From Denitratisoma oestradiolicum (GTDB lineage: Bacteria; Pseudomonadota; Gammaproteobacteria; Burkholderiales; Rhodocyclaceae), in contig NZ_LR778301.1 of the NCBI RefSeq assembly GCF_902813185.1, positions 620,001 to 684,000 of the forward strand: 64,000 nt of DNA, in the 5' to 3' direction. Positions within the stretch are counted from its first letter, which is position 1, and each line of letters starts with the position of its first letter. Position numbers and translations under genes: made by a program. Below, piece after piece: positions 2,281 through 32,792 of the stretch. Under the pieces are notes generated by a model that was given only the letters and a program-made list of their open reading frames with translations, had not been told where the DNA came from and did no database searches.

Positions 2281-4335
2281 TCATCGCTGCACCACCATCA
2301 GCACGCCGATCAGGGTCAGGAAGCTGTAGAGCAGGTAGAGGGCGATGCGTCCCTGTTGCAGCAGGCCGATCAGCCGGGCCAGGCGTTCCACGCCGACCGC
2401 CACCGGCAGGTAGAGCCAGTGCCAGAAATGGTCGCCGGTGCTGACCCGGTAACGGGGATGTTCGTCGAAGGGGGTCGGCAGTTCCCGCTCCAGGCGGAAG
2501 AATGGCTCGAATATCTGCCGGATCGGCTGGCCGAAACCCTCCGCCGTGTCCTGCATGCGGGCGGTCTGCCAGGGAAAGCCGCAGTCCCAGGGGACCGCCC
2601 GGCGCAGCCGGCCGTGATAGAGGCGGCGCACCAGCAGCCAGGCCAGGGCGCAGCTCGCCGCCACGCCCAGCAGGAACACCACCGGCCCATAGCTGGCCCG
2701 CTCCACGGTGACCGGCACCAGCAGCCAGCCGCTGGCCGCCACCCGGTCTCCCAGGCCCGTGGCGACCAGTTGCTGGGTTACCGGATCAATCAACTGGATG
2801 AACTGGACCGGCAGCAGGCCCAGGGCCAGGCAGCCGGCCACCAGCCAGAGCATGCCGATGCGCTCCCAGGTGCCGGCGTCGTGGGCCTCGGACAGCTTGG
2901 CTTCCCGGGGCTGGCCCAGGAAGATCACGCCGAAGAACTTGACCATGGTGTAGCCGGCCAGGGCCGCCAGCAGGGCGATCATGGCCGCCACCACGGGGAT
3001 CAGCATGTTGAGGAAGGAATTGGGCAGGCCCGGGGTGAACAGGAAGCTTTGCAGCAGCAGCCATTCCGAGACGAAGCCGCCCAGGGGGGGCAGGCCGGCG
3101 CTGGCCAGCACGCCGATCAGGCTCACCCAGGCCACCCAGGGCATGTAGCGGATCAGGCCGCCCAGCTTGCCCAGGCTGCGCTCCCGGGTGGCATGGAGCA
3201 CCGCGCCGGTACTGAGGAACAGCAGGCTCTTGAACAAGGCATGGCTGGCCACGTGGTAGAGCACCGCCGTCAGGGCCAGGGCCGCCACCGGTTTCATGCC
3301 GTAGGCGGAAAACAGCACCGCCAGGCCGATGCCGGTGAACAGGAGGCCGATGTTCTCGATGGAGGAGTAGGCCAGCAGCCGCTTCATGTCCACCTGGACC
3401 GCGGCGAAGACCACGCCGAACAGGGCCGTGGCCAGGCCGATGGCCAGCAGCACCACGCCCCACCACCAGAGCTGGGCCTGGAGCAGGTCGAAGGAAATTC
3501 GCAGCACACCATAGACGGCGGTCTTCAGCATCACCCCGCTCATCAGGGCCGAGACCGGCGAAGGGGCGGCGGGATGGGCCTCGGGCAGCCATATATGCAG
3601 GGGCAGGATGCCGGCCTTGGCGCCGAAACCGAACAGGGCCAGCAGAAAGGCGGCCGAGCCCCAGAAGGGCGTGAGCTGCTGGAGCCGCATGTTGGCGAAG
3701 GTGTAGTCGCCGGTGTTGGCCTGCAGGACGCCGAAGCAGAGCAGGATGCCGATGGCGCCGATGTGGGCCACCAGCAGGTAGAGATAGCCGGCGCGGCGGA
3801 TTTCCGGAATGCGGTGGTTGGCGATGACCAGGAAGTAGGATGACAGAGCCATGGTCTCCCACATCACCATGAAGGCGTAGGCGTCGTCGGCCAGCACCAC
3901 CAGGGCCATGCTGGCGAGGAATACGTGGTATTCGAAGCAGAGCAGGCCCGGCGGCGTGCCTTCTCCCTTGCGGAAGTAGCCGGCGGCGAAGGCAGAGACG
4001 CCTGCCGAGGCGGCGCCGATCACCAGCAGGAAAAAGGCGGACAGGGCATCCAGGCGGAAATGGAAGGGCAGGCCGGGCAGGCCGATGGGCAGCACGGCGG
4101 TCTCGGGGATGCCCAGCACGGCGCTCAGGGCGATGCCGGTCAGGACCAGACCGAACAGGCCACCGGCGGGGAACAGCAGCCGCGCCACCAGCGTCAGTCG
4201 CCGCAGGGCGAACAGACCCGCCACGCCGATCAGCAGCCAGGCGACCACGACGACCAGTGCCCAATCCAGATGCACCCAGTGGCCGAGATTCTGGAGCACG
4301 GTCATGACCATGGCCCGGATTGTCGCACCCAACAT
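2281..4335 (-). CDS. hyfB: Hydrogenase-4 component B / NuoL-like proton-translocating subunit
   Basis: 684 residues, the usual size for HyfB/HycC, with many transmembrane helices. The Proton_antipo_M core contains FMVMWETMALSSYFLV (conserved Glu of helix 5), a GAKAGILPLHIWLPEAHPAA loop and KRLLAYSSIENIGLLF. It ends in a long amphipathic region and a final hydrophobic segment (ALYLLYSFLTLIGVLMVV). It would pump ions as part of a group 4 hydrogenase or similar complex together with HyfC, E and F. It is the first visible gene of the leftward unit, about 225 bp from the divergent gltX. ATG 4335 is used, but ATGs at 4311 and 4305 are possible because no strong ribosome-binding site separates them. 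The hydrophilic catalytic subunits are outside the window. Confidence 0.9.
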   Translation of the reverse strand: MLGATIRAMVMTVLQNLGHWVHLDWALVVVVAWLLIGVAGLFALRRLTLVARLLFPAGGLFGLVLTGIALSAVLGIPETAVLPIGLPGLPFHFRLDALSAFFLLVIGAASAGVSAFAAGYFRKGEGTPPGLLCFEYHVFLASMALVVLADDAYAFMVMWETMALSSYFLVIANHRIPEIRRAGYLYLLVAHIGAIGILLCFGVLQANTGDYTFANMRLQQLTPFWGSAAFLLALFGFGAKAGILPLHIWLPEAHPAAPSPVSALMSGVMLKTAVYGVLRISFDLLQAQLWWWGVVLLAIGLATALFGVVFAAVQVDMKRLLAYSSIENIGLLFTGIGLAVLFSAYGMKPVAALALTAVLYHVASHALFKSLLFLSTGAVLHATRERSLGKLGGLIRYMPWVAWVSLIGVLASAGLPPLGGFVSEWLLLQSFLFTPGLPNSFLNMLIPVVAAMIALLAALAGYTMVKFFGVIFLGQPREAKLSEAHDAGTWERIGMLWLVAGCLALGLLPVQFIQLIDPVTQQLVATGLGDRVAASGWLLVPVTVERASYGPVVFLLGVAASCALAWLLVRRLYHGRLRRAVPWDCGFPWQTARMQDTAEGFGQPIRQIFEPFFRLERELPTPFDEHPRYRVSTGDHFWHWLYLPVAVGVERLARLIGLLQQGRIALYLLYSFLTLIGVLMVVQR

Positions 4336-4392
4336 TGCCGTTTTATCGCTCCCATTTGTTGGGCATCATATCAGTTTCTGATTACATTTAAA

Positions 4393-4415
4393 TGTTAATG
4401 TTATTAACATTAACA
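4393..4415. promoter_or_regulatory. Perfect 10-3-10 palindrome, likely operator between hyfB and gltX
   Basis: TGTTAATGTT-ATT-AACATTAACA is a perfect inverted repeat in an AT-rich patch within GC-rich DNA, 58 bp upstream of the hyfB start. Its size and symmetry suit a dimeric repressor or activator site. It does not match an FNR (TTGAT-N4-ATCAA) or CooA-type consensus, so the regulator is unknown. Confidence 0.6.
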
Positions 4416-4560
4416 TCGGGCGCTTCAGGATCGGAAATCAGCTACCAATCTAGGTGATGGGAGCAAAGCCGCCATGTTCTGGGAACATGCCACGGGCACG
4501 GGCCATCAAGGGGCGGCACCGTCGCGTAAAATCACCCGCTTTTACGCAGGTCAGACTCCC

Positions 4561-5952
4561 ATGACGGTACGCACCCGCTTCGCGCCCAGCCCCACCGGCT
4601 ATCTCCACATCGGCGGCGCCCGCACGGCCCTGTTCGCCTGGGCCTACGCCCGCCGCCACGGCGGCAAGTTCATCCTGCGGATCGAAGACACGGACCTGGA
4701 GCGTTCCACGCCGGAAGCGGTGCAGGCCATTCTCGACGGCATGCGCTGGCTAGGCCTGGAGCATGACGAAGGCCCCTACTACCAGATGCAGCGCATGGAC
4801 CGCTACAAGGCCGTGATCGCCCAGATGCTGGCCGCGGGCAGCGCCTACCACTGCTATATGTCGAAGGACGAGCTGGAGGCCCTGCGGGCCGAGCAGGAGG
4901 CCAGGAAGGAAAAGCCCCGCTACGATGGCCGCTGGCGGCCCGAGCCGGGCAAGACCCTGCCGCCGCCACCGCCCGGCGTGGAGCCGGTGGTGCGCTTTCG
5001 CAACCCCCAGGAGGGCGTGGTGGCCTGGGACGACCTGGTCAAGGGCCGCATCGAATTCGCCAATACGGAACTGGACGATTTCATCATTGCCCGGGCCGAC
5101 GGCACGCCCACTTACAACTTCTGCGTGGTGGTGGACGATTGGGACATGGGCATCACCCAGGTCATTCGCGGCGACGACCATGTGAACAACACGCCGCGCC
5201 AGATCAACGTGCTCCAGGCCCTGGGCGCCGCCGTGCCCCAGTACGCCCACCTGTCGATGATCCTGGGGGACGACGGCCAGAAGCTTTCCAAGCGCCGCAA
5301 CGCGGTGGCGGTGACGGATTTCGACGATGCCGGCTACCTGCCGGACGCCATCATCAACTATCTGGCGCGTCTGGGCTGGTCCCATGGCGACGACGAGTTC
5401 TTCTCCCGGGAGCAGTTCGTGCAGTGGTTCGACCTGGACCACATCACGCCTTCCGCCGCCCAGTTCAACACCGAGAAGCTCAACTGGCTCAACCAGCAAT
5501 ACATCAAGCAGGCCGCCGACAGCCATCTCGCCGCCGAAGCGGCCCGCCGCCTGGCGCCCCGGGGCATCGACCCGGAGGCCGGCCCCCCACTCGAGCGGCT
5601 GGTGGCCCTCTACAAGGACCGGGTGGGCAACCTCAACGAACTGGCCGACGCGGTGGAGCCCCTGCTGGTGGAAGTCCACCCCTCCGCCGAGATGATCGAG
5701 ACCCACCTGACCGCCGCCGCCCGGGCGGCCCTGGCTGATCTAGGGGGGCGGTTGGCGACGGCGGAATGGCAGAAGGCTGTCCTGAGTCAGGCCATCAAGG
5801 AAACCTGCGCCGTCCTGGGCCTGAAAATGCCTCAGGTGGCGATTCCCCTGCGGGTCGCCCTGCTGGGCCAGCCCCAGTCCCCGGCCATCGACGCCGTGCT
5901 CGAAGTGCTGGGCCGGGAAACGGTGCTGGCGCGGCTGAAGCGCTGGCTCTGA
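4561..5952 (+). CDS. gltX: Glutamyl-tRNA synthetase
   Basis: 463 residues, the normal size for a bacterial GluRS. The class I signature HIGH appears as [17 protein letters not shown] at residues 10-26 and the KMSKS loop as KLSKRRNAV near residue 242. The ATG at 4561 is chosen because the protein then begins [13 protein letters not shown] as in the family; an upstream in-frame ATG at 4474 would add a non-conserved tail. It charges tRNA-Glu in the cytosol. It is transcribed rightward from the shared promoter region with hyfB and ends at a hairpin terminator at 5975-6004. Confidence 0.97.
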
Positions 5953-8420: not shown

Positions 8421-11400
8421 CTATCCGGCCAGGAATTCCTCGTGAAACGCATCGCTCGGGATGGGGCGGCTGATCAGATAGCCTTGCAGGTAGTCGCAAC
8501 CCAGGCGCCTGAGTTCCCGCCGCTGGGCCTCGGTTTCGACCCCTTCGGCGACAACATTGAGACGCAGGCTGTGGGCCAGGGCGATGATGCCCGTGACCAA
8601 GGCCGTGGCGTCGGGATCGCGCTGCATGTCCTGGATGAAGGAACGGTCGATCTTGATGGTGTCGGTGGGAAAGCGCTTGAGGTAACTGAGGGACGAATAG
8701 CCGGTGCCGAAGTCGTCGATGGACAGCCTTACCCCCATCTTGCGCAGGGTTTGCAGGGTACCGATGGTCTCCCGTGCGTTTTCCATCAATACGCTTTCGG
8801 TGATCTCCAGAACCAGGGCGGAGGCCGGCAGCCCGCTGCGTTCCAGGGCCGTTTGCACCAGTTCGGCCACCAGGCCCTGCTCCATTTGCCGCGCCGAGAG
8901 GTTGACCGCCACATAGATGTCGCTGCCGCTGGCGTCGCGCCAGGCCTTGGCCTGAGTGCAGGCCATGTGCAGTACCTGTTCGCCGATGGCGATGATGAGT
9001 CCGGTTTCCTCCGCCAGGGGGATGAAATCCGCCGGGGAGACCAGTCCCCGTTCCGGGTGCTGCCAGCGCACCAGGGCTTCCATGCCCTTGAGCGCGCCAT
9101 CCCGGGCGTCAACCACCGGCTGGTAGTGGACGATCAGTTCTTCGCGCTCTATGGCGTGGCGCAGTTCGGTTTCCATCTTCAGATGTTCGGAGAGGGTGCT
9201 TTCCATGTCGGGCGTATAGAAACAGATGCGGCTGCGGCCCCGCTTGGCCTGGTACATGGCCGTGTCGGCGTGGCGCATCAGAGCGCTGACATCCAGGCCG
9301 TCGTCCGGGTAGATGGAAATGCCGATGCTGACGGAAACGAAAATATCTTGATTGTTGATGCCGAAGGGCAGGGCCAGTGCCCGGCTGACCTTCTGGGCCA
9401 CGCTCTTGGCGGCGGCCGGTTCGGCGATGTCTTCCAGCAGGATGGTGAATTCGTCGCCGCCCTGGCGCGCCACGCAATCGTTGGTCCGTACGCAACGACT
9501 GATGCGGGTGGCAACCTCGGTGAGCAGGTAGTCGCCGGCTTCGTGGCCCATGGAATCATTGACCACCTTGAAACGGTCCAGGTCCAGGAAGAGGATGGCG
9601 AAGCGCTCCTGCTTGATGGTCGAGCGCTCCAGCACCTGCTGCACCTGGCTGCCGAAAGCCAGGCGGTTGGCCAGACCGGTCAGCACGTCGCTGTAGGCGA
9701 GATGGCGCACGTGACGCTCGGCCTGGGTGGCCTCCACCGTGCGACGCACTCGCTGGGTGACCACGGACAGATGGATGGGCTTGGGAATGTAGTCGATGGC
9801 CCCGGCGGCGAAGGCCCGGTCCACCGAGTGCTTGTCCTCCAGGGCGGTAATCATCAGCACCGGGATGTCGGCCAGGCGGGGTGATTGCTTGATGGTGATG
9901 CAGGCGGTGAATCCATCCATCACAGGCATCAGCGCATCCATCAGGATCACATCGGGAATCGTGTGTTCAAGCCAGGCCAGGGCCTCCGCCCCATCCGTGG
10001 TTTCGGCCACGCGGAATCCGGCTCGCGCCAGGGCGTGGTAGAGGGTGATGCGGGTGCTGCGGTCGTCATCCACGATCAGCACCAGGGGCATGGCCTGGTT
10101 GGGGGCCAGGGCCGATGCCGGCAGGCCGGCCGTCAGCTCCGCCCGCAACAAGGGTAGTACCCGGGTGTATTCGACGCGCAGCCGGTCCACCTGGTGGCCG
10201 GCTTCAGCGCTGATGCCCAGATCGGCGGCTTCCTCGATTTCCCGGGCGACGGCGGCCAGGGCGTCGGCGCCCAGATTGCCCGCCGCGCCCTTGATGACAT
10301 GGGCGGTGCGCCGCAGGCCCTCGTTGTCGGATTCCGCCGCAGCCTGCTCTATGGTCTCAAGGTAATTCGGCATGTCCTCGATGAAGGGACGAATCGCTTC
10401 GGGAATCGCATCGCCGAGGACCTCCCGCAGTTTCCCCATGGTGCTGTAATTGAGCGCCGATGCGGCATCGTCCGCCACTTCCCGGGGGCGCAGGGGCTGG
10501 GCGGCTTCCCAGGCCAGCCAGTGCTTCAGCTTGGCCGCCAGCATCTCCAGGGTGAGAGGCTTGGCCAGGTGGTCATCCATGCCGGCGGCCAGGCATTTCG
10601 ACAGGTCGGCCGGTTGGGTATTGGCGGTCATCGCGATGATCGGGGTGCGCCGCTCGGAGGCCTGTTCCATGCTGCGGATGGCTGCGGTGGCCTCGTAGCC
10701 GTCCATGACCGGCATGTTGCAGTCCATCAGGACGATGTCCCATTTCTCGGACTGGAAGGCGGTGATGCTCGCCAGCCCGTTTTCCGCCAGGCCGGCCTCC
10801 GCCCCGAGCATTTCCAGCATGCTCTGGGCAATCACCTGATTGGTGCGGTTGTCTTCCACCACCAGCACCCGGCAAGGCTGAGCCGGGTCCCGTCCATGCT
10901 GGGTATCCGGCGCGGCGCTGAGCGGTTCCGGCGCGTCGGCGGCCTCCAGCGGCAGATCGAACCAGAAGCAACTGCCCTGGCCGGGCTGGCTGACCACGCC
11001 GATGGAGCCTCCCAGAAGGGTCACCAGTTGCTTGCAGATGGACAGGCCGAGGCCGCTGCCACCGAAGCGCCGCGTGGTGGAAGTGTCGGCCTGGGTGAAG
11101 GAATCGAAAATCGTGGATTGATGTTCCGCCGCGATGCCGATGCCGGTATCGCTCACCTGGAACCGTATCAGGTTGCGTTCCGCCGGCCCGACGTTGATGC
11201 TGACGCTGCCGCGCTCGGTGAATTTGATGGCGTTCCCCAGCAGGTTCACCAGGATCTGGCGAATGCTCGTCATGTCGCCCCGCAGCCGCGCCGGCAAGGC
11301 CGGATCGATCCGCCAGTCCATGGCGAGATGCTTGTCCCTGGCCTGGAGGGAGAGCATGTCCACGATGCGTGCAACAAGGTGAGGCAGGTCGAAATCGATC

Positions 11401-12431
11401 TGCTCCGGTTCCAGTTTGCCGGCCTCCAGTCGTGAAAAGTCGAGGATGTTGTTGATGAGTTCCAGCAGGTATTGGGATGATTCCCAGGCCAGATCCAGCA
11501 GTTGCGCCTGGCGGGGCGGCATGGCGCTGGCCTTGAGCATGTCCAGGGTGCCGATCACGCCGTTGAGCGGTGTTCGAATCTCATGACTGACCGTGGTGGC
11601 GAATTCCGCCTTGAGGCGCGCGTAGCGCATGGCATCGTCCCGGGACTGGCGCAATTCCTGTTCGCGCTCCTGCAACACCTGCATCATGCTGTTGAAGGCA
11701 TGGGCCATGGCGGCCACATCCCTGGGCCCGGAAAGCTCGGCGGGACCGACGGGTTCCCCCCGCTCGGCCTTGCCCATGGACAGTGCCAGGGCCTCCAGGG
11801 GCTGGCTGATCCGGCCGGCCAGGCGGCGCACCACCAGCAACAGCAGCAGGGCAAAGGTCAGGGAAAGGCCCAGGTTCACCACGAAAAAATCGCGGCTCAT
11901 GCGCTGCAACGTCGCCTTGCTCTGGGCCAGGCGCACATAGCCCAGCAACAGGGCGGGGCGTTCGTTCATGTCAAAGGGGGAACCCGCTTCCTCCGCATCC
12001 CGGACGATGGGGGCGATGAAATACCAGTGCTGTCCGTCCTCGCCATCAAGAAGTGCCTTGTTGGCCAGCAAGCGGGATTCGTCCGGGGCGCCGGGTGGGA
12101 TGGCAATGGCTTCTCCCCGCGACACCAGGGCCTGATGATTGAGGGTGCGGATTTCCAGGCCGGCGATGTCGGGAAAGGCCAGGGTGGTTTTGACTGCCTC
12201 GGCAGCGTTGTCCTCCGACATGAAAACGACGGCCAGGCGGCTTTGCTGGGCGAGGTTGGCGGCCACCCGCTGTCCTTGCAGGATGAAGTTTTCCTGTAGG
12301 CGGCGATCGGATTGCCAGGAAAGCATCAACGAGGAAATCAGCGCCAGACTGAACAGGCCCGTCGCAATGACGATGCTCAGTTGGCGCCGAAACGAACTTC
12401 GCTGGGAGAGCAGGGCGCGGATCGAGATCAT
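8421..12431 (-). CDS. Hybrid sensor histidine kinase with REC-Hpt-REC-GGDEF-EAL domains
   Basis: 1336 residues combining a whole phosphorelay with c-di-GMP enzymes. A first membrane helix (about 17-39), a periplasmic CHASE8-like region (40-185) and a second helix (about 186-208) lead to HAMP (to about 265). HisKA has the H-box [14 protein letters not shown] and is followed by the HATPase. REC1 holds [15 protein letters not shown], Hpt holds [12 protein letters not shown] and REC2 holds [13 protein letters not shown]. The diguanylate cyclase motif GGDEF ([15 protein letters not shown]) and phosphodiesterase motif EAL ([11 protein letters not shown]), with [17 protein letters not shown], are both intact. 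It would sense an envelope signal and set c-di-GMP levels. Its start overlaps the substrate-binding protein gene by ORF proximity (7 nt apart), suggesting that protein delivers the ligand. Confidence 0.93.
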
Positions 12432-12437
12432 GGGAGA

Positions 12438-13475
12438 TCAGGGTTCGGGAAAGGTCAGATGGAAGGTCTGCTGCTGCCGCTCACTGAACTTCAAGCCCAG
12501 ATGGCTGGCGGTGCGCATATTGACGGCCAGCAACAGATTCCGCAGCGGAAATTGACCCCGAACAACGGTGCCGGACAGGCTGTCCATGGCGGTCAGGGCC
12601 AGGTTGCGCCCCATTTCAGTGGTGTCGGGGTAGAGGGAAAACAAGGCGCCACGCCGCGCATGGGCCAGATTGCTGGAAAAAACCGCCAGGTTGCGGCTCC
12701 AGGATTCCTGCAACACCAGGGGCAATATGGTGGACTCGTCCACCGTGGTGGAATCCTGGGGTAGCCACAGGGCATCGCGTTTGGGATCCGCCGTGGCGAG
12801 CAAGGACTGGTAACGGCCCAGCGCCGTCCCCAGGTCGCCCGCCTCCTGGGCCACCAGTTCCAGCCCTGTCGCGCGGGCGGCATCCCGTGCCAGACGGATC
12901 AGCCAGCCGCTGTTGTTGGGGTCGAAGACCACATGGACCCGGTGCACCTCGGGCATCAGGCTCTTGAGGCGCTCGAACAGCAGGCCGGGGTCTGGCGCCA
13001 GGCTGAGCAGGGTGACCTTGCGACTCTCGGCTTCCGGTAGGGATAGCAGGCCGCCGGCGACGATTTTCAATTCGCCATTGACGGCCATGGCTGTCCTCAG
13101 GCCGTTGCGGCCGAGGGCGATCACCACCCGTACATCCTGTCGCCGCAATTCGTTGGCGATATCCTGGTTGCTGGAATTCCTGCCGACGAGGAGGCGCGTG
13201 ACCCGGTTGCGGGCCTTGTCCTCGATGCCTTCGATGATCTGGGTGAAGATGCTGCGATAGGGTTCGGCCGATTCCGGATAGATCACGGCAATCATCGCCC
13301 CCGTCGCGATGGCCTCGGTGCCGGCGCGCATGGAAGGCGAATGCCCGGTGGTCGTGTCGAGGGCCAGCAACATCGGGGTGCCCCGTGCTGCTGGCATTTC
13401 AGGCCCGGCCGCCCAGGCTGCTGGTACCAGCAGCAGTGACAGCAACAGGGTGGCCGCAGGTCTTGATCTGCTCAC
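12438..13475 (-). CDS. ABC-type substrate-binding protein paired with sensor kinase
   Basis: 345 residues. The GTG at 13475 is chosen because a proper signal peptide follows directly (SRPAATLLLSLLLVPAAWA) and because it sits at the 3' end of an R1 repeat with a GGGGGG-type ribosome-binding site; the longer ATG-started reading comes from the repeat. The mature part reads like the ABC_sub_bind (DUF534) periplasmic family: VIYPESAEPYRSIFTQIIEG, VIALGRNGLRTAM, VHVVFDPNNSGW, LWLPQDSTTVDEST and ALFSLYPDTTEMGRNLA. No permease or ATPase gene is nearby, and the stop lies 7 nt before the hybrid kinase start. The likely role is ligand capture for that kinase rather than transport (inference). Confidence 0.85.
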   Translation of the reverse strand: MSRSRPAATLLLSLLLVPAAWAAGPEMPAARGTPMLLALDTTTGHSPSMRAGTEAIATGAMIAVIYPESAEPYRSIFTQIIEGIEDKARNRVTRLLVGRNSSNQDIANELRRQDVRVVIALGRNGLRTAMAVNGELKIVAGGLLSLPEAESRKVTLLSLAPDPGLLFERLKSLMPEVHRVHVVFDPNNSGWLIRLARDAARATGLELVAQEAGDLGTALGRYQSLLATADPKRDALWLPQDSTTVDESTILPLVLQESWSRNLAVFSSNLAHARRGALFSLYPDTTEMGRNLALTAMDSLSGTVVRGQFPLRNLLLAVNMRTASHLGLKFSERQQQTFHLTFPEP

Positions 13476-13577
13476 TGGACTACCCCCCATCACCATGTGA
13501 GGGAATGACGGCGGTTCGTCGCCCCGCGGCTCCGGGCTGTGTAACGAGGCCCTTCGGACAGCCGTACGGGACGCTCA
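13476..13577 (-). repeat. Junction repeat R1 (diverged copy) upstream of the substrate-binding protein gene
   Basis: Read leftward it starts TGAGCGTCCCGTACGGC, has GGAGCCGCGGGGCGACGAACCG and ends GGGGGGTAGTCCA before GTG 13475. The central C/G hairpin is eroded compared with other copies. The rest of the 13.5-13.98 kb gap holds a small palindrome (13894-13915) and otherwise no recognisable gene. Confidence 0.75.
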
Positions 13578-13893: not shown

Positions 13894-13915
13894 AACTATG
13901 TCTTTCGGCATAGTT
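13894..13915. promoter_or_regulatory. Inverted repeat upstream of the ThDP-enzyme operon
   Basis: AACTATG-tctttcgg-CATAGTT, 7-bp perfect arms with an 8-nt spacer, ends 64 bp before the ATG at 13980 and could be an operator for the 13980-17412 gene trio. No regulator gene lies next to it. Confidence 0.4.
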
Positions 13916-13979: not shown

Positions 13980-15791
13980 ATGTCTGTGGTGCCCCTGCGC
14001 AATAACCCCATGACTGCCGAGGTGCCGCAGGTCGAGGCCGCGGATTTGGTTGTCGCCTATCTGGAGCAACTGGGCATCGAATATGTGTTCGGCGTGCCCG
14101 GGGGCGCCATCGAACCGCTTTACAACGCCCTGGCGCGCAGCGCCCGGCGTGGCGGACCCCGGCCAGTCGTCGCGCGGCACGAAGCCGGCGCCGCTTTCAT
14201 GGCCGACGGTTATGCACGGGAAACCGGCAGGATCGGCGTCTGCTGCGCCACTTCGGGACCGGGCGCCACCAACCTGATCACGGGCGTCGCCTGCGCCAAG
14301 GACAACGGCATTCCCATGCTGGTGATCACCGGTCAGCCCATCATGTCCGCCTTCGGCCGGCACGCCCTGCAGGAGTCGGCCTGTACCGGGATCGACACGC
14401 TGAGCATGTTCAGCCACTGCACCCGCTATAACTCCCTGGTTTCCCATCCCGACCAGATGGAGCACAAGCTGGTGGCAGCCCTGATGCGTGCCGCCCGTCC
14501 GCCGCGGGGACCGGCCCACCTTTCCGTGCCCCTGGACATCATGCGCAGCCCCATCGTCAGTGCCGAGCCCAGTTATGATTTGCGGCACAAGCTCATGCCG
14601 CGCGCCATGTTCGACCACGAGGCCTTTCAGCGCCTGGGCGAACTGCTCGACGCCGCTCGGCACCCGATCATGCTGATCGGCGGCTGGTGCGGCGAGGCCG
14701 CCCCTTCCATGCTTCAGTTCGCCCAGCGCCAGGGCGTGCCTTTCGTCACCACGCCAGACGGCAAGGGCCTGGTCAATCCGCGCCACCCTTACAATCGCGG
14801 CGTATTCGGTTTCGCCGGTCACGTTTCGGCCGATGCTCTGTTGAGCGACCCCCGTATCGATCTGGTGCTGGCGGTGGGCACCAGCATGAATGAATGGACC
14901 AGCAGTGGCTGGAGTGACAGCCTGCTCAATAGCAAGATGGTTCATATCGATTCCAATGAGGAGCACCTGATGCGCTCACCCATGGCCCAACTGCATGTGT
15001 GCGGCCATATTCGCAGCATTTTCGACCGCCTGCTGGCACGCATCGAAAGTGAGAAACCATCGTCGCGCCCGCGCCGTCCGGCCGTCGACCCCGAGACCTT
15101 CCTGTCTGAGTTCGACCGGGCCCAGATGCGCAGTTCGGCGACGCCCATCACCCCGCAGCGCCTGATGCACGAGTTCAGCACCCGCTTCCCGCCCTCCGTC
15201 CGTTACCTGGCCGATGCCGGCAACAGTCTGGCCTGGAGCATCCATTACCTGACACCCCAGGACCAGCGCGTTGGCGAACGGCGGGATGCCCGCAAGACCC
15301 ATCGCCGCGGCCAGGGGCGCCGCCAGAGCGATGGCGGCTGGCTGCGCCTGACCATGGACTTCGCTCCCATGGGCTGGGCCATCGGCGGCGCGGTCGGCAC
15401 CGCCGCCGGCAATCCCGACGTGCCCGTGGTCTGTTTCACCGGCGACGGCAGCATGCTCATGAATGGTCAGGAAATCTCGGTGGCGGTGGCCGAGAAACTT
15501 AAAGTCATCTACGTGGTGCTCAACGATCAGGCACTGGGCATGGTGAAGCATGGCCAGCGGCTGGCCGACGCCGAACCCATAGGTTTCGAGTTACCCCTTA
15601 CCGACTTTGCCGCCATGGCCCGAGCCATGGGCGCCGAGGCCCACACCATCCGCAGCCCCGCCGACTTCGCAGTCCTGGATGTCGCCGTTATCTGCAGTCG
15701 CCGGGGCCCCACCCTGCTCGATGTGCATATCGACCCGGAGCAGGTGCCGCCCATGAGCCTGCGCATGCGCGCCCTGGGTACGGCGCCATGA
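13980..15791 (+). CDS. ThDP-dependent acetolactate synthase-like enzyme
   Basis: 603 residues. The N-terminal pyrimidine-binding domain has the catalytic-type Glu in ARHEAGAAFMADGYARE (about E68) and SGPGATNLITG. A central domain follows, then the C-terminal diphosphate domain with GDGSMLMNGQEIS near 488 and the closing VVLND. Such enzymes decarboxylate 2-oxo acids or join and cleave acyl units (acetolactate synthase, glyoxylate carboligase, 2-hydroxyacyl-CoA lyase); the substrate cannot be told here. Odd: a basic stretch around residues 428-452 (ERRDARKTHRRGQGRRQ) interrupts the start of the C-terminal domain. A strong AGGAGAGGAAGG precedes the ATG. The stop overlaps the next start (ATGA), so the three genes 13980-17412 are translationally coupled. 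Confidence 0.88.
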   Translation: MSVVPLRNNPMTAEVPQVEAADLVVAYLEQLGIEYVFGVPGGAIEPLYNALARSARRGGPRPVVARHEAGAAFMADGYARETGRIGVCCATSGPGATNLITGVACAKDNGIPMLVITGQPIMSAFGRHALQESACTGIDTLSMFSHCTRYNSLVSHPDQMEHKLVAALMRAARPPRGPAHLSVPLDIMRSPIVSAEPSYDLRHKLMPRAMFDHEAFQRLGELLDAARHPIMLIGGWCGEAAPSMLQFAQRQGVPFVTTPDGKGLVNPRHPYNRGVFGFAGHVSADALLSDPRIDLVLAVGTSMNEWTSSGWSDSLLNSKMVHIDSNEEHLMRSPMAQLHVCGHIRSIFDRLLARIESEKPSSRPRRPAVDPETFLSEFDRAQMRSSATPITPQRLMHEFSTRFPPSVRYLADAGNSLAWSIHYLTPQDQRVGERRDARKTHRRGQGRRQSDGGWLRLTMDFAPMGWAIGGAVGTAAGNPDVPVVCFTGDGSMLMNGQEISVAVAEKLKVIYVVLNDQALGMVKHGQRLADAEPIGFELPLTDFAAMARAMGAEAHTIRSPADFAVLDVAVICSRRGPTLLDVHIDPEQVPPMSLRMRALGTAP

Positions 15792-16603
15792 GCCAGGAAC
15801 TGAATGCGGAAACCATCAGTACCCATATCTGGGAAGAAGAGGCGGAAGCGGACAACCCCTACGCCGCCGCCCGTTGCTTCTGCCGGGGCTACGATGTCTT
15901 CGGCGATCTGCTGGAACGCGCCGACTACATCGACTATCTCTACCTCCTGTTCAGGGGCGAACGGCCCGCTGCCGCTGCGGCCCGCGCCTTGCGCATGCTG
16001 GCGATCGCCCTGGCCAATCCGGGGCCTCGCGATCCCTCGGTCCATGCTGCGATGGCGGCCGGGGTGGGCGACTCTACCGCCGCATCGGCCCTGATGGCGG
16101 CTCTGGCGGTCGGTGCCGGTGCCGGGGGCGGCGCCCGGGAGTTGTACGAAGCCATGGTGGCCTGGCAAGCGTCTGGCGCCGATCCGGCAACCCGGCTTGC
16201 CCGCCTCGGCACCCGCGCCGCGCCATCCCGGCTCGAAGTCTGGCCGTCGCCGTCCCGCCCCCCCGGTTTCGCGGCCTATGGCAGCACTTGCGTTGCACCG
16301 GTGGTGCAGACCCTGACGAGCCTGTCCGCCGTCCTGACTGGCGGCGCCCTGACATGGCTGTGCCAGGAACGGGCGGCACTGGAAGCCGTGGCCGGCCACC
16401 CCCTGTCCATGATAGGCGTGGCCGCCGCCGCATTGACCGATCTGGGGTTTGCCCCCCACCATGGGGAAATGCTGTTCCTGCTGCTACGTCTGCCTGGTGC
16501 TGCCGCCCACGCGCTTGAACAGCAGGATCTGGGTTTTCGTCACTTTCCCTTTTTTGCCCTGGAACTGGAAGATGATCCGGGCGCCAGCGGAGAATCGACA
16601 TGA
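15788..16603 (+). CDS. Citrate synthase-fold protein (citryl-CoA lyase-like), first of a pair
   Basis: 271 residues, much shorter than citrate synthase (about 430) but the size of the proteins usually labelled citryl-CoA lyase. ERADYIDYLYLLFRGERP and a glycine/alanine-rich helix pair (DPSVHAAMAAGVGDSTAASALMAAL, split here by eye) recall the citrate synthase N-terminal half. The segment VGAGAGGGARELYEAM corresponds to the usual GPLHGGANE active-site loop, but its His is absent. The LSMIGVAAAALTDLGF helix matches the NVDFYSG-type segment without its Asp. Coupled to both neighbours by ATGA overlaps. Family by eye; function unknown, possibly one half of a heteromer with the next product. Confidence 0.7.
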   Translation: MSQELNAETISTHIWEEEAEADNPYAAARCFCRGYDVFGDLLERADYIDYLYLLFRGERPAAAAARALRMLAIALANPGPRDPSVHAAMAAGVGDSTAASALMAALAVGAGAGGGARELYEAMVAWQASGADPATRLARLGTRAAPSRLEVWPSPSRPPGFAAYGSTCVAPVVQTLTSLSAVLTGGALTWLCQERAALEAVAGHPLSMIGVAAAALTDLGFAPHHGEMLFLLLRLPGAAAHALEQQDLGFRHFPFFALELEDDPGASGEST

Positions 16604-17412
16604 CCGACCCCGCCATCCTGGAAGCCCATGCCGGACCACTGCGCTCCCGCGTCGGAGGAGCCTTTCCCGGCCAGCGGGCGGTGTTTCGCGGCCATGATCT
16701 GCATCGGGATCTGAAAGATACAAGTTGGCTCGGACTGTATATCTTCGGCATTACCGGGCGGCAGCTCAGTGCTGCGCAATTGCGTTTGCTCGACGCGATC
16801 TGGGCCTATACCAGCTACCCGGATGCAAGGCTCTGGAACAACCGCGTCACGGCTCTGGCCGGTAGTGCCCGGAGTACTGGCGCATTGGGAGTGGCCGCTG
16901 CCATGGCAGTGTCGGAAGCCGGAATTTATGGTGGCCAGATCATCGCCGCGATTGCCGGGTTTCTGGAGCAAGCCAGACAACGTTGCGAAGCCGGAGAAGC
17001 TCTGGAGAAAGTCGTCAAGGATTACCTGCGGATCAATCGTGGCATCCCCGGCTATGGCCGCCCGATACGGCGCATGGACGTTGACGAGCGGAACGGCCCC
17101 ATCATGGCGATGGCTCGGGCCGAGGGATTGGCCGACGGTCCCTTTGTGTGCCTCGCGCAGCAGATAGAGGACATTCTGCTTGCCGGCCGCTGGCGCATGC
17201 GTATGAACTACGCAGTCGTTTCCGCCGCCCTTGCGCTCGACTTAGGACTTTCCTCCCAAGAAAATTACTTATTTACCTTGCCTGCTTTTCTGGCAGGAAT
17301 GCCCCCCTGTTATCTTGATGCCCTTGACCGTCCGGAAGGCGCGACCCTGCATTTCAAATGCAGACAAATCCACTACACAGGCCCTGCGCGGCGCACCTGG
17401 GGCGAGTCTTGA
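16600..17412 (+). CDS. Citrate synthase-fold protein (citryl-CoA lyase-like), second of a pair
   Basis: 270 residues. It follows the citrate synthase pattern more closely than its neighbour: SYPDARLWNNRVTALAGSA, AMAVSEAGIYGGQIIAAIAG, RINRGIPGYGRPIRRMDVDE and RMNYAVVSAALALDLGL. By eye alignment the three catalytic positions are changed: the GPLHGG His is Tyr (GIYGGQ), the GFGH His is Arg (GYGRP) and the N-x-[ED]-F Asp is Ala (MNYAVV). It starts inside the previous gene's stop (ATGA) and ends 71 nt before the TonB receptor start. Likely acts with 15788-16603 and the ThDP enzyme in one pathway; the reaction is not known. Confidence 0.72.
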   Translation: MTDPAILEAHAGPLRSRVGGAFPGQRAVFRGHDLHRDLKDTSWLGLYIFGITGRQLSAAQLRLLDAIWAYTSYPDARLWNNRVTALAGSARSTGALGVAAAMAVSEAGIYGGQIIAAIAGFLEQARQRCEAGEALEKVVKDYLRINRGIPGYGRPIRRMDVDERNGPIMAMARAEGLADGPFVCLAQQIEDILLAGRWRMRMNYAVVSAALALDLGLSSQENYLFTLPAFLAGMPPCYLDALDRPEGATLHFKCRQIHYTGPARRTWGES

Positions 17413-17483: not shown

Positions 17484-19629
17484 ATGATCGCAATATCGTC
17501 AGTAGTTCCGAAGAGATGGCCATTGAGGTCCCTTGCTGCCTGGATGGCGCTGCTTTTGGGCACCCAGCCGGCGCTGGCCCAATTCGAGGACGAGACGGAG
17601 CTCAGTCTGTCCTTCGGCGAAAAGTCCACGGTCAGCATCGCCACCGGCGGGCAGCAATTGCTGTCCCGTGCGCCCGCGGTGGCCAGCGTCATCACGGCGG
17701 AGGAGATCCGCAACATGGGGGCCAGGGATATCGACGAAGTCCTGGCCCATGTGCCCGGTCTCCATGTTTCCAAGTCCGAGTCCATCTCCACCTCCCAGTA
17801 CCTGATACGGGGCATGACCAGCACCTACAATCCCCAGGTGCTGATGCTGATGAATGGCGTGCCCATGACCAGCGTCTATCTGGGCAATCGCACCGATTTC
17901 GGTACCAGCCTGCCGGTGGAGAATATTTCCCGGATCGAGGTCATTCGGGGCCCGGGCTCGGCCCTCTATGGCGCCGATGCGTTTTCCGGCGTCATCAACA
18001 TCACCACCAAGAGCGCCAGGGAAATCGGCGGCACCCGCTATGGCATCGGCCTGGGTTCTTTCCGGACCCACGATCTGTGGGCCCAGTATGGAGGCGAATT
18101 GGGCGGCATCGAAGTGGCCTCCTATCTGCGCGTGGGCAGGACCAACGGCCAGCGCCGCAGTATCGACGCCGACGCCCAGACCGCCCTGGATGCCGCCCTC
18201 GGGACCCGCGCCTCCCTGGCGCCCGGGGAGATACACGAGGGCTACGGCGCCATCGACGGCCAACTGGACATGAATTATGCCAATTGGCGCCTGCGCCTCG
18301 GCTATCGCCTGCGAGATGATGTCGAGACAGGGCCGGGCACCGCCGATGCCCTGGACCCGGTGGGTCGAGGAAAATCGGAGCGCTATACCGCCGATCTGAT
18401 CTGGCGCGATATCCAGTTCCGCCCGGACTGGGACGTGACGGCCCAGATCAATTTCATGGATCAGGCCAACACCGTTCCGACACCGCTACGGTTGTTTCCC
18501 GCTGGGGCGTTTGGCGCGGCCTGCGGCTTCCCCTGTTATCCGGAAGGCATGATCGGCGCCCCCAGCAAATGGGAACGTGCGCTGCGGACCTCGGCCAATG
18601 CCAGCTATTCCGGCTGGCAGGACCATCGGCTGCGTTTCGGTCTTGGCCATGATGTGCAGCAGATCTATCGGGTAAAGGAGTTCAAGAATTTCACTTTTGT
18701 CACGACCCCCGGGGGGGCTTTTCCCCTTTCCGTTGGGTGCGATCACGGATGTGTCGTCCACCGCGCCCTTCCTGAAAACCGGGTCGCGCAAGGTTGATTA
18801 CGTCTTCCTTCAGGATGAGTGGAATTTCACCCGGGACTGGACCCTGACTGCTGGCCTGCGCCATGACAAGTACTCCGATTTTGGCGGTACCACCAACCCG
18901 CGCCTGGCCCTGGTCTGGGACACGGCCCAGAATCTGACCACCAAGTTCATGTTCGGCCGGGCTTTCCGGGCGCCTTCCTGGATCGAGCTGTACAGCATCA
19001 ACAATCCCGTGGTCCAGGGCAATCCGGAGCTGAAGCCGGAAACGGTCAGCACCTTCGAGGCGGCCGTCTCCTGGCAGGTGGGCAGCGATCTCCAGGTGAA
19101 TGCCAATGTGTTCCGCTATCAGTGGGATGACATCATCCGTTTCGTTCCCAACGCGGTTCCCACCACCGGCTCCACCGCCCAGAACTCCGGCAAGCAGCAT
19201 GGACAGGGCATGGAGCTTGAGGCGACCTGGGACCTGAGCCGGGATCTGCGCCTGACCGGGAGTGTTTCCGCGCAGCATTCCGTCGACGAAACCTCGGGAC
19301 TGGACGCTGGTCTTGCCCCCCATCGCCGCTACTTTGGTCAGGCCACCTGGCGACCCCTCCCTATGTGGACTCTTGATGCCAGCCTCAATCATGTCGCCGA
19401 CCGCAAGCGCCAGCCAGGGGACAGCCGCGGCCAGATCGACGATTACACCAGCGTCAATCTGGCCCTGCGCCGGGAGCGGATGTTCGGCAACTGGGAATTC
19501 CGTGGGACGGTGACCAATCTCTTCGATGCGGATGTGCGGGAGCCTTCTCTGGCCCCCGCCACCAATCTTCCCTTCGACCTGCCCATGCCCGGCCGTGGCT
19601 GGTATGTGCAACTTGTTCATAGCCTCTGA
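17484..19629 (+). pseudogene. TonB-dependent receptor split by a frameshift in a G7 tract
   Basis: The ATG at 17484 follows a GGGAGG ribosome-binding site. The product has a signal peptide (AAWMALLLGTQPALAQ), a plug domain (APAVASVITAEEIRNMGARD ... IEVIRGPGSALYGADAFSG) and a beta-barrel, ending after about 715 residues. The frame breaks at a run of five C and seven G (18706-18717). The first part reads off into FPLSVGCDHGCVVH and stops at 18797; the second part (SSTAPFLKTGSRKVDYVFLQDEWNF onward) continues one base out of frame to 19629. Removing one G restores a continuous receptor. This is either a true mutation, a phase-variable tract or a sequencing error. It would import a ligand across the outer membrane with TonB energy. 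Confidence 0.88.
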
Positions 19630-19640
19630 AAGAAAAATCG

Positions 19641-20399
19641 ATGGAACAGAAATTGTTGGGCAAGACTGCCCTGATCACCGGCGGCAACAGCGGTATCGGC
19701 CTGGCGACGGCGCGCCTGTTTCGTGATCACGGCGCCCAGGTGGTCATTACCGGACGGGAGGCGGCTACCCTGCAACAGTCCCGGGAGCTGCTCGGCGGCG
19801 AAGCGCTGGTACTCCAGCGGGACATGGGCAGGCTGGACGATATCGAGTTGACCATGGCCGACATCAAGCAGCGCTTCGGCAAGCTGGACATTGTGTTTGC
19901 CAATGCCGCCATTGCTCGTCCCGCGCCCTTCGCGTTGATTGATGAAGCCCATTTCGACGACATCGCCGGGGTGGATTTCAAGGGAGTGTTCTTTACCCTG
20001 CAAAAGGCACTGCCCCTGCTTCAGGAAGGTGCTTCCCTGATGGTGACGACATCGATTTCCAACCAGAAGGGGTCGCCGAACTTCAGCGTCTATGCAGCCT
20101 GCAAGGCTGCCCTGCGTTCCCTGGTGCAAACCCTGTCACTGGAACTGGCGGACCGGGGCATCCGCGTCAATGCCATCAGCCCCGGTCCCATCGACACGCC
20201 GGGGTTTGGCCGTTGGGAAGTGCCGGACGATGTTGTCCAGGCCGCCCGCCTGGAATTCGAGCGCAAGTCGCCGTTCAAGCGCTTCGGCACGGCCGAGGAG
20301 GTGGCCCGGGTGGCGCTGTTCCTGGCCTGCGCGGATTCGAGCTATGTGGCGGGCACGGAAATCGTGGTGGACGGGGCCATCAGCACGGCGCTTCTCTGA
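19641..20399 (+). CDS. SDR-family NAD(P)-dependent oxidoreductase
   Basis: 252 residues, a classical short-chain dehydrogenase. The nucleotide-binding motif TGGNSGIG is at residues 13-20, the structural motif FANAAIA sits at about 88-94 and the catalytic Ser is in TTSISNQKG. The YxxxK motif is YAACK, followed by the typical VNAISPGPIDTPG and a C-terminal SSYVAGTEIVVDGA. It oxidises or reduces a hydroxyl/keto group on an unidentified substrate in the cytosol. It starts 11 nt after the TonB receptor stop and is the last gene before the GC-rich hairpins of 20400-20500. Confidence 0.92.
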   Translation: MEQKLLGKTALITGGNSGIGLATARLFRDHGAQVVITGREAATLQQSRELLGGEALVLQRDMGRLDDIELTMADIKQRFGKLDIVFANAAIARPAPFALIDEAHFDDIAGVDFKGVFFTLQKALPLLQEGASLMVTTSISNQKGSPNFSVYAACKAALRSLVQTLSLELADRGIRVNAISPGPIDTPGFGRWEVPDDVVQAARLEFERKSPFKRFGTAEEVARVALFLACADSSYVAGTEIVVDGAISTALL

Positions 20400-32396: not shown

Positions 32397-32471
32397 CCGA
32401 TTCTCCATGTTCCGGTTCGTCCGGTGGCGCGCCTGCCATGGGCGCCATCGAGCGAAGATTGAAAGGAACCC

Positions 32472-32630
32472 TCGGCAGCAGGTTTTCTGGCTTCCGGATC
32501 ATCCGCTCGCCTCGCGCCTTCCCGGGGGAGTGGTCTTCCCCAGTGGCTGGTCATGAACCTTGCGAAGCGGCGTCCCCGGTTACAGCGGCGGGCCCGTCAC
32601 GGAATTGCACCGTGTTCCCTTGTCTGCCGA
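32472..32630 (-). promoter_or_regulatory. Cobalamin riboswitch upstream of cobT
   Basis: Read leftward from 32630: TCGGCAGACAAGGGAAC, then the conserved ACGGTGCAATTCCGTGACGG and CCCGCCGCTGTAA, the B12 box GCCACTGGGGAAGAC and the closing AGCCAGAAAACCTGCTGCCG. The outer ends pair (CGGCAG/CTGCCG). These are the hallmark segments of the cobalamin riboswitch; it lies about 75 nt before the cobT start. Confidence 0.95.
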
Positions 32631-32792
32631 ACGATTAAAGCGCTGCGGATTATCGAGGCTGATACGCCGGCTGTCAAAACGACCTCAGGTTTTCGATACC
32701 CGGCCGGGCCGCACCGAGGAAGGCAGAACCATTGTCTATGCCGGTGGTCGAATAAACACCAAAGTTGGCAGGACAGAGGAGGTGAGATTGCC

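What the first reader, a model, noticed from the sequence alone, without database searches (positions are those of the whole stretch)
13980..17412. Coupled ThDP enzyme plus two citrate-synthase-fold proteins with altered catalytic residues
Three genes overlap by ATGA and so are made together: an acetolactate-synthase-like enzyme with intact ThDP motifs, and two roughly 270-residue citrate-synthase/citryl-CoA-lyase-like proteins. By eye, the catalytic triad positions of the second are Tyr, Arg and Ala instead of His, His and Asp, and the first also lacks the loop His. A pair of degenerate paralogues suggests a heteromer with new chemistry or a carrier/regulatory role for a ThDP product. Their pathway is not evident from neighbours and may be undescribed.
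Basis: partly seen in the sequence, partly recalled or inferred. Interest (0 to 1): 0.72.

Follow-up and report, generated by a model that had tools for sequence, protein, structure and literature searches.

The report
Putative bacterial signal-making and sensing operon
Three linked bacterial genes, a thiamine enzyme and two citrate-cleaving-enzyme look-alikes whose usual catalytic residues are replaced, travel with receptor and sensor genes in many bacteria, so they probably make an unknown small molecule that the cells then detect, perhaps an undescribed form of bacterial communication.

Summary
A (ThDP enzyme, 13980-15791), B (15788-16603) and C (16600-17412) overlap by ATGA. B and C are confidently predicted citryl-CoA-lyase folds without the His/His/Asp triad. 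In C the sites are Tyr (52/55), Arg (55/55) and Ala/Gly (51/55): repurposed rather than decayed. A-B-C is the core of a recurrent module with a TonB-dependent receptor, a PF04392 periplasmic binding protein and a histidine kinase, which in the window also carries GGDEF and EAL. All six parts lie together in 38 of 49 well-flanked named-genome loci and in 19 of 28 from a class-wide sample. C occurs in 42 of 369 sampled genomes of the class. B and C co-vary most among the enzymes, and one genome fuses A to B, suggesting an A-B-C complex. Two other families keep A-B-C beside a giant kinase and LuxR-type regulator, or a carrier protein and adenylation enzyme, instead. Best explanation: A-B-C (often with an SDR) synthesise a small molecule that the module imports and senses, working like Vibrio ScrABC with unrelated synthase chemistry. 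Product, secretion and sensing are inferred. Scavenging and metallophore rivals stay open. My searches found no description.

The parts
13980..15791 (+). A: ThDP-dependent acetolactate-synthase-like enzyme, 603 aa
   Evidence: closest solved structures by sequence BbmA 8x3x and CsmA 8x3z; next-best match in own genome 29% identical
15788..16603 (+). B: citryl-CoA-lyase-fold protein without catalytic triad, 271 aa; conserved E17, G34-Y35, G79, R81, G111, G115, G160, G237, H241, E244
16600..17412 (+). C: citryl-CoA-lyase-fold protein with Tyr/Arg/Ala-Gly at the triad positions, 270 aa; invariant P74 D75 R77 W79 N81 G151 R154 P155 R164 D214 G233 R265
   Evidence: single match in own genome
15788..15791 (+). 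ATGA overlap of A stop and B start
   Evidence: sequence
16600..16603 (+). ATGA overlap of B stop and C start; equivalent overlap possible in 90 of 103 non-identical B-C pairs
17484..18797 (+). TonB-dependent receptor, 5' part (plug); reading frame broken near 18.70-18.80 kb in this genome
   Evidence: single ORFs of 675-706 aa in the 12 relatives
18697..19629 (+). TonB-dependent receptor, 3' part (beta-barrel), in another frame
19641..20399 (+). SDR oxidoreductase, 252 aa; in many relatives its homologue lies between A and B
12438..13496 (-). Periplasmic binding protein (PF04392) with an apparent signal peptide (read by eye), 352 aa
   Evidence: same family beside the trio in relatives
8421..12431 (-). 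Hybrid sensor kinase with HisKA, HATPase, two REC, Hpt, GGDEF and EAL (HAMP match below its cut-off), 1336 aa; GGDEF and EAL letters present

Best explanation
The trio is the synthase half of a self-contained make-and-sense module. A (ThDP enzyme) forms a carbon-carbon bond between 2-oxo-acid-derived units, giving an acyloin or alpha-hydroxy-beta-keto-acid-type intermediate. The SDR, where present, reduces it. B and C form a heteromer that docks on A and acts on the product or an acyl-CoA: C keeps a carboxylate-binding Arg (R164) but replaces the His/His/Asp acid-base set by Tyr/Arg/Ala-Gly, while B is a partner subunit. The released small molecule is taken up through the TonB-dependent receptor, bound by the PF04392 periplasmic protein, and read by the membrane histidine kinase, whose output in the window is phosphorelay plus c-di-GMP (GGDEF-EAL). 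In layout it works like Vibrio ScrABC (synthase, periplasmic binding protein, GGDEF-EAL sensor) with unrelated synthase chemistry. Shown: genes, folds (predicted), residue changes, conserved co-location, one A-B fusion. Inferred: the A-B-C complex, the reaction, export, binding and signalling.
For: Conserved module: of 79 named-genome loci found with C alone, B adjoins C in 79 and an A homologue is seen in 73. Of the six without A, five hold 1.3 kb or less before B; the sixth (L081) has 7.2 kb before B with none, and only 0.7 kb after C. Of the 49 with at least 4.5 kb left and 9 kb right of C: A 49, TBDR 47, HK 43, binding protein 38, SDR 27, all six 38 (HK counts any HK/GGDEF/EAL match of 120 bits within 10 kb). 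Class sample: 40 loci, B in 36; 28 with 6 kb on each side: A 24, B 27, TBDR 25, binding protein 21, HK 22, SDR 2, all six 19 (its B count omits one A-B fusion locus). One of the 40 repeats a named locus; without it 18 of 27. Module edges are sharp: among 132 nearest outside ORFs the commonest Pfam families occur in 4. Own genome: the receptor's next paralogue falls from E 8e-130 to 1e-15 and PF04392 has 3 matches, 2 over cut-off, so the grouping is not a density effect. Complex: B-C is the highest partial correlation among A, B, C, TBDR and PBP (0.55, 39 beta loci); A-B natural fusion of 886 aa in L190. Binding protein and HK track each other closely (r 0.88, or 0.87 without duplicates; 0.84 in beta loci). 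Sensor swapping: L135-L138 (families f84, f97, other class) keep A-B-C. L135, L137 and L138 have a 1727-1771-aa ORF and a response regulator beside it, scanned in L137 and L138 as Pkinase-AAA-GAF-histidine-kinase-type and LuxR-type RR, with FkbH-like and MaoC-SDR genes; L136 has an acyl-carrier protein and amino-acid adenylation enzyme after C. These are anabolic neighbours. ScrABC layout: PMC11315295, passages only.
Against: No product, secretion or binding data. No conserved exporter (an EamA-family transporter lies among the outside ORFs in 4 of 132). Known analogues (ScrB, LuxP; recalled) need no TonB receptor. Desulfuromonadia loci L079, L089, L099 and L044 carry a more distant ThDP enzyme (33-39%). 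The L079, L089 and L131 kinases scanned lack GGDEF-EAL, so c-di-GMP output is not universal. L099's neighbouring binding proteins are of other families (NMT1_2, SBP_bac_3). 11 of 49 and 9 of 28 well-flanked loci lack at least one of the six by these searches; L069, L091, L188, L194 and L196 show neither receptor nor binding protein. The SDR is rare in the class sample (2 of 28). The window's own receptor gene is frame-broken. A second TBDR-PF04392 pair exists in the own genome without A-B-C, so the sensory pair is not exclusive to the trio.
Confidence: 0.5

Rival explanations
1. Scavenging and breakdown: the receptor and binding protein capture a scarce outside compound, and A (run as a lyase), SDR and B-C (a retro-Claisen-type lyase) degrade it; the sensor tunes behaviour to the nutrient.
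For: TonB receptors usually import scarce compounds (recalled); citryl-CoA lyase is a lyase fold; PF04392 is a substrate-binding family.
Against: No inner-membrane importer recurs: among 132 outside ORFs every Pfam family with two or more members (E<=1e-8) is listed and none is an ABC permease or ATPase. Two families pair the trio with FkbH-like and MaoC-SDR genes, or with an acyl-carrier protein and adenylation enzyme, i.e. biosynthesis.
Confidence: 0.17
2. Metallophore: A-B-C make an alpha-hydroxy-carboxylate chelator; the receptor reimports the metal complex and the binding protein-kinase senses it.
For: Citrate-type fold and a receptor nearest to heme and siderophore receptor models, all below cut-off; several hosts are named Gallionella, Sideroxydans or Geobacter.
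Against: No Fur-box enrichment upstream of A (85 regions, mean best match 10.87 of 19 against 10.67 shuffled) and little upstream of the receptor (97 regions, 10.59 against 10.33; 13 or more in 7.2% against 3.1%; both sets hold some duplicate loci). No ABC importer recurs. Hosts also include Collimonas, Rugamonas, Massilia and Methylomonas.
Confidence: 0.12
3. A secreted natural product with another role (for example antimicrobial or redox shuttle), with the receptor and kinase serving self-sensing or resistance.
For: FkbH-like, MaoC-SDR, carrier protein and adenylation enzyme beside the trio in two families; P450 or a HisC-like aminotransferase after C in single loci (L093, L091); EamA-family transporter in 4 of 132 outside ORFs.
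Against: Apart from those EamA genes no resistance or efflux family recurs at the edges; the module is short and nearly constant.
Confidence: 0.12
4. B-C are a non-catalytic regulatory or carrier pair for A (as ACT-domain subunits regulate acetohydroxyacid synthase), and A alone makes the product. This can be true together with the best explanation, so the odds overlap.
For: Triad absent in both; A-B fusion; an AHAS small-subunit domain occurs in only 1 of 28 extra ORFs inside the module spans.
Against: C's replaced triad positions and many other polar residues are near-invariant in 55 rows, which is unexpected for a scaffold; the carboxylate-binding Arg is kept.
Confidence: 0.25

Closest known systems
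Vibrio parahaemolyticus ScrABC (S-signal) system
   Same: Synthase gene, periplasmic binding protein and GGDEF-EAL membrane sensor in one operon (PMC11315295, passages)
   Different: ScrA is an aminotransferase; here a ThDP enzyme, two citryl-CoA-lyase-fold proteins and often an SDR; a histidine-kinase phosphorelay and a TonB receptor are added
LuxP-LuxQ AI-2 receptor (recalled)
   Same: Periplasmic binding protein plus hybrid histidine kinase; window HK matches LuxQ model at 329 bits
   Different: Far below the LuxQ cut-off of 1200; binding protein matches PF04392 only; synthase genes of other families
Citryl-CoA lyase (6hxp) and the ATP-citrate-lyase CCL module
   Same: Fold of B and C
   Different: His/His/Asp triad absent in both; two paralogues side by side and mostly next to a ThDP enzyme
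BbmA and CsmA (PDB 8x3x, 8x3z) ThDP enzymes
   Same: Closest solved relatives of A by sequence (398.6 and 356.6 bits with the A profile)
   Different: No paper on them was found in the library, so their chemistry could not be compared; the BbmA alignment leaves A residues 427-452 unmatched between two matched stretches
Acetohydroxyacid (acetolactate) synthase large subunit
   Same: ThDP domains and overall family
   Different: Below the cut-off of each of the 25 NCBIfam models shown (best 286.5 against 538); no recurrent ACT-domain small subunit

Membership tests
Citrate synthase / citryl-CoA lyase superfamily (B, C) | CCL fold | tested here: met
Citryl-CoA lyase / citrate synthase (enzyme) | His/His/Asp catalytic triad | tested here: not met
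   C: Y/F, R, A/G/S/V in 55 of 55 rows; B: loop His in 10 of 57, second His in 1 of 57, Asp in 0 of 57; positions from profile alignment
Citryl-CoA lyase (NCBIfam PRK06224 models) | Score above curated cut-off | tested here: not met
   59.8 and 44.5 bits against 245
Acetolactate synthase large subunit | NCBIfam equivalog cut-off | tested here: not met
   286.5 against 538.35 bits (TIGR00118); none of the 25 models shown (of 60 matched) passes
ThDP-dependent enzymes | N, M, C TPP domains and ThDP motifs | tested here: met
ScrABC-type signal system | Synthase adjacent to periplasmic binding protein and GGDEF-EAL sensor | tested here: met
   In the window; in relatives, though some kinases lack GGDEF-EAL
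ScrABC-type signal system | Aminotransferase synthase (ScrA) | tested here: not met
   Synthase genes are ThDP, CCL-fold and SDR
ScrABC-type signal system | Product binds the periplasmic protein and switches c-di-GMP | not testable with these tools
   needs biochemistry
LuxPQ | LuxQ equivalog score | tested here: not met
   329 against 1200 bits
Fur-regulated metallophore locus | Fur box upstream | tested here: inconclusive
   Simple consensus match not enriched upstream of A, slightly higher upstream of the receptor
Fur-regulated metallophore locus | ABC permease/ATPase partner of the binding protein | tested here: not met
   not among families with two or more members in 132 outside ORFs and 28 ORFs inside the module spans

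The most novel reading that the evidence does not exclude
An undescribed and widespread class of bacterial signal: a ThDP enzyme delivers an acyloin-type intermediate to a B-C heteromer in which a citryl-CoA-lyase active site has been rebuilt from His/His/Asp to Tyr/Arg/Ala-Gly, giving new condensation chemistry; the product is drawn back in through its own TonB-dependent receptor and read by a binding protein-kinase pair that controls c-di-GMP.
Probability: 0.33. Interest if true: 0.88.

Novelty: new variant of a known kind. Interest (0 to 1): 0.74.

Why it matters
If right, roughly one in nine sampled genomes of the window's class (42 of 369, own genome included) carries C of a ready-made signalling module whose molecule is unknown, including named genera such as Gallionella, Methylomonas, Dechloromonas and Collimonas. 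It would give a new synthase chemistry and a dedicated TonB receptor tied to a self-made signal, which I believe is rare (recalled). B-C would also show how a citrate-type active site can be rebuilt. The module is compact (about six or seven genes), so the question is directly testable in cultured hosts.

Tried and rejected
Protein-database homologue search for B and C was not possible, so distribution rests on genome and contig scans. Plasmid tblastn found nothing for B or C. Fur-box and riboswitch ideas: no Fur enrichment upstream of A, little upstream of the receptor; Rfam at gathering scores found no riboswitch at the module in the window and 11 relative loci. B-C gene fusions: none in 110 pairs and none in the wider scan, where the only fusion found was A-B in L190. 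tRNA-linked insertion: tRNAs within about 0.5 kb upstream of A only in L105 and L114, plus one about 1.1 kb upstream in L083, of 60 loci scanned; rejected as general. The window's inverted repeat upstream of A was found in 1 of 85 upstream regions, its own. A rough gene caller mislabelled or missed several genes; counts in the report use tblastn or HMM hits instead. Papers: ten searches, of which one search was for ScrABC and mainly for BbmA/CsmA-type enzymes. No listing described the trio; I saw listings and abstract starts only, except passages of PMC11315295. No paper on BbmA or CsmA chemistry was found.

Mirror-tree values are distances of linked genes, so they show co-inheritance as well as contact; only the rank order is used. 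One search held duplicate loci (six locus pairs identical in C); removing them changed r by 0.01 or less for the seven pairs recomputed. The C tree needs 9 class changes (least possible 4) in 78 rows, which hints at transfer, but many rows are MAGs.
Full report
OBSERVATION. A has the three TPP-enzyme domains and ThDP motif residues invariant in 16 aligned sequences, window included. B and C score weakly against citryl-CoA-lyase models (59.8 and 44.5 bits; cut-off 245). AlphaFold2 models made with 57 and 55 rows are confident (pLDDT 93.0, pTM 0.89; pLDDT 91.7, pTM 0.86). Their best structural matches are citryl-CoA lyase 6hxp and ATP-citrate-lyase CCL modules.

TRIAD. Profile alignments to 6hxp place the canonical His/His/Asp. 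Counts: C has Tyr (52) or Phe (3) of 55 rows (54 distinct), Arg 55 of 55, and Ala 32, Gly 19, Ser 2, Val 2. B has a variable residue at the loop His (His in 10 of 57), mostly Pro at the second His (43; His 1), and Ser 21, Thr 16, Pro 10, Ala 4 and no Asp at the Asp. C keeps R164 (55 of 55) at the place of the Arg in the CCL 'DPR' stretch, which in citrate synthase binds substrate carboxylate (role recalled). B lacks that Arg but keeps an Arg at 234 in 46 of 57 and H241 and E244 in 56 of 57 each. So C looks rebuilt; B looks like a partner. The complementary retention fits a shared site, but this is inference.

CONTEXT IN THE WINDOW. Upstream and divergent are a PF04392 periplasmic binding protein (12438-13496) and a 1336-aa hybrid kinase with HisKA, HATPase, two REC, Hpt, GGDEF and EAL (8421-12431). 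Downstream are a TonB-dependent receptor in two frames and an SDR (19641-20399).

DISTRIBUTION. Same family: 19 of 150 genomes have a C match at E<=0.001, and three of those (G006, G070, G118) are weak matches of 24-28% identity; the two other same-genus genomes listed have none. Order: 18 of 399; phylum: 10 of 299 (E<=1e-20). Class with a deeper profile: 42 of 369 (E<=1e-20). Each count includes the window's own genome. In named genome contigs 234 stretches encode a relative; the 80 best were kept, giving 79 loci. Of the 78 rows in the C tree (77 named loci and the window) 60 are labelled Betaproteobacteria, 6 Gammaproteobacteria, 4 Desulfuromonadia, 1 Hydrogenophilia, 1 Fibrobacteria and 6 without label.

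MODULE. In the 20-kb (or shorter) contexts of 15 same-family genomes, 12 have A, B, C, receptor, binding protein and HK together (a 16th region, L038, holds only the end of one C gene). Named loci: B next to C in 79 of 79, an A homologue in 73. Of the 49 with at least 4.5 kb left and 9 kb right of C: A 49, TBDR 47, HK 43, PBP 38, SDR 27, all six 38. The HK count takes any HK, GGDEF or EAL match of 120 bits or more within 10 kb. These loci were chosen for similarity to C, so I repeated the census on 40 loci from the evenly drawn class sample (one of the 41 other hits, G578, had been fetched before as L130, which has all six by tblastn). B was found in 36; among 28 with 6 kb on each side: A 24, B 27, TBDR 25, PBP 21, HK 22, SDR 2, all six 19. 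One of these repeats a named locus (L173 and L117); without it 18 of 27. L192 looks like a decayed remnant, and L199 and L201 hold C with no B found. Edge genes do not recur: the commonest Pfam families among 132 nearest outside ORFs occur in 4 each, FolD-type and EamA. I gave that of the 153 outside ORFs selected; the rest were left out for the size limit or as duplicates or known module genes.

EVIDENCE FOR A COMPLEX. Pairwise-distance correlations: PBP-HK 0.88, B-C 0.87, A-TBDR 0.84, TBDR-HK 0.82, others lower (without duplicates 0.87, 0.88, 0.84, 0.82). Within 62 beta loci PBP-HK is 0.84 and B-C 0.72, while A-TBDR drops to 0.61; partial correlations among A, B, C, TBDR and PBP in 39 loci give B-C 0.55, all other pairs 0.32 or less. 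A 4-base B/C overlap is possible in 90 of 103 non-identical pairs. In L190 A and B are one 886-aa ORF, A at 22-592 and B at 609-876, with C following.

VARIANTS THAT SPEAK TO FUNCTION. Four Desulfuromonadia loci keep B and C with a divergent ThDP enzyme on the other strand. L079 and L089 have receptor, PF04392 protein and an HK-REC kinase nearby; L099 has the receptor but binding proteins of other families; L044 shows none in the short stretch held. Loci L131-L134 have TBDR, B, C, A and an HK-type gene in that order (the L131 PF04392 protein and kinase were scanned). L135-L138 have no receptor match. L135, L137 and L138 instead have a 1727-1771-aa ORF and a response regulator, scanned in L137 and L138 as a protein-kinase, AAA, GAF and histidine-kinase-ATPase protein and a LuxR-type regulator, with FkbH-like and MaoC-SDR genes. 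L136 has an acyl-carrier protein and an amino-acid adenylation enzyme directly after C. So the trio is a portable synthase-like core joined to different sensors.

MECHANISM. Most likely: A-B-C(-SDR) make a small molecule, and the receptor, binding protein and kinase import and read it. The nearest working analogue is ScrABC of Vibrio parahaemolyticus, where an aminotransferase makes an unknown S-signal that binds periplasmic ScrB, which switches the GGDEF-EAL protein ScrC (PMC11315295, passages). Steps shown: gene content, order, predicted folds, residue replacement, fusion. Steps inferred: product type, complex, export, binding, c-di-GMP output. Against it: no product known, no conserved exporter, GGDEF-EAL absent in the L079, L089 and L131 kinases scanned, some loci without receptor or binding protein, and a second receptor-PF04392 pair without the trio in the own genome.

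NOVELTY. Ten searches of the open-access library gave no listing that describes the trio; most subscription papers are not covered. A, B and C fail the curated cut-offs of the nearest NCBIfam models shown. I rate it a new variant of a known kind: the make-and-sense layout is known, the synthase is not.

Noticed in passing
window 18690-18800: The TonB-dependent receptor is split between two frames next to runs of C, G and T; 12 of 12 relatives have it as one ORF. Either an assembly error or a broken gene; described only, not mended.
   Followed up: partly
L190:6776-9433: Natural fusion of the ThDP enzyme (A) to the first citryl-CoA-lyase-like protein (B) in a genome of about 1.5 Mb.
   Followed up: yes
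L025:6293-13382 (same locus as L069): One Rhodocyclales genome has the order A-SDR-B-C-B-C-C, with no receptor or binding protein match in the 20 kb held.
   Followed up: partly
L101:3620-10798: Tandem duplication of the whole A-B-C trio, followed by a GGDEF-EAL gene.
   Followed up: no
L136:7805-9571: Acyl-carrier protein and amino-acid adenylation enzyme directly after the trio, suggesting a longer biosynthetic route there.
   Followed up: partly
L099:12952-15164 and 4289-5125: In this Geobacter-labelled locus the neighbouring binding proteins are of other families (NMT1_2, SBP_bac_3), so the sensor side may vary with the trio kept.
   Followed up: partly
G000:C1:931250-934240 (L159): A second TonB receptor next to a PF04392 binding protein in the window's genome, without the trio.
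   Followed up: partly
window 32460-32662 (-): Cobalamin riboswitch (101 bits), far from the trio.
   Followed up: no
window 13894-13915: Perfect 7-base inverted repeat with 8-base spacer upstream of A; found in 1 of 85 upstream regions, its own, so not a shared operator.
   Followed up: yes
L196:3005-15825: A trio locus surrounded by ORFs with weak matches to part of the HK profile (receiver-like) instead of a TonB receptor.
   Followed up: no
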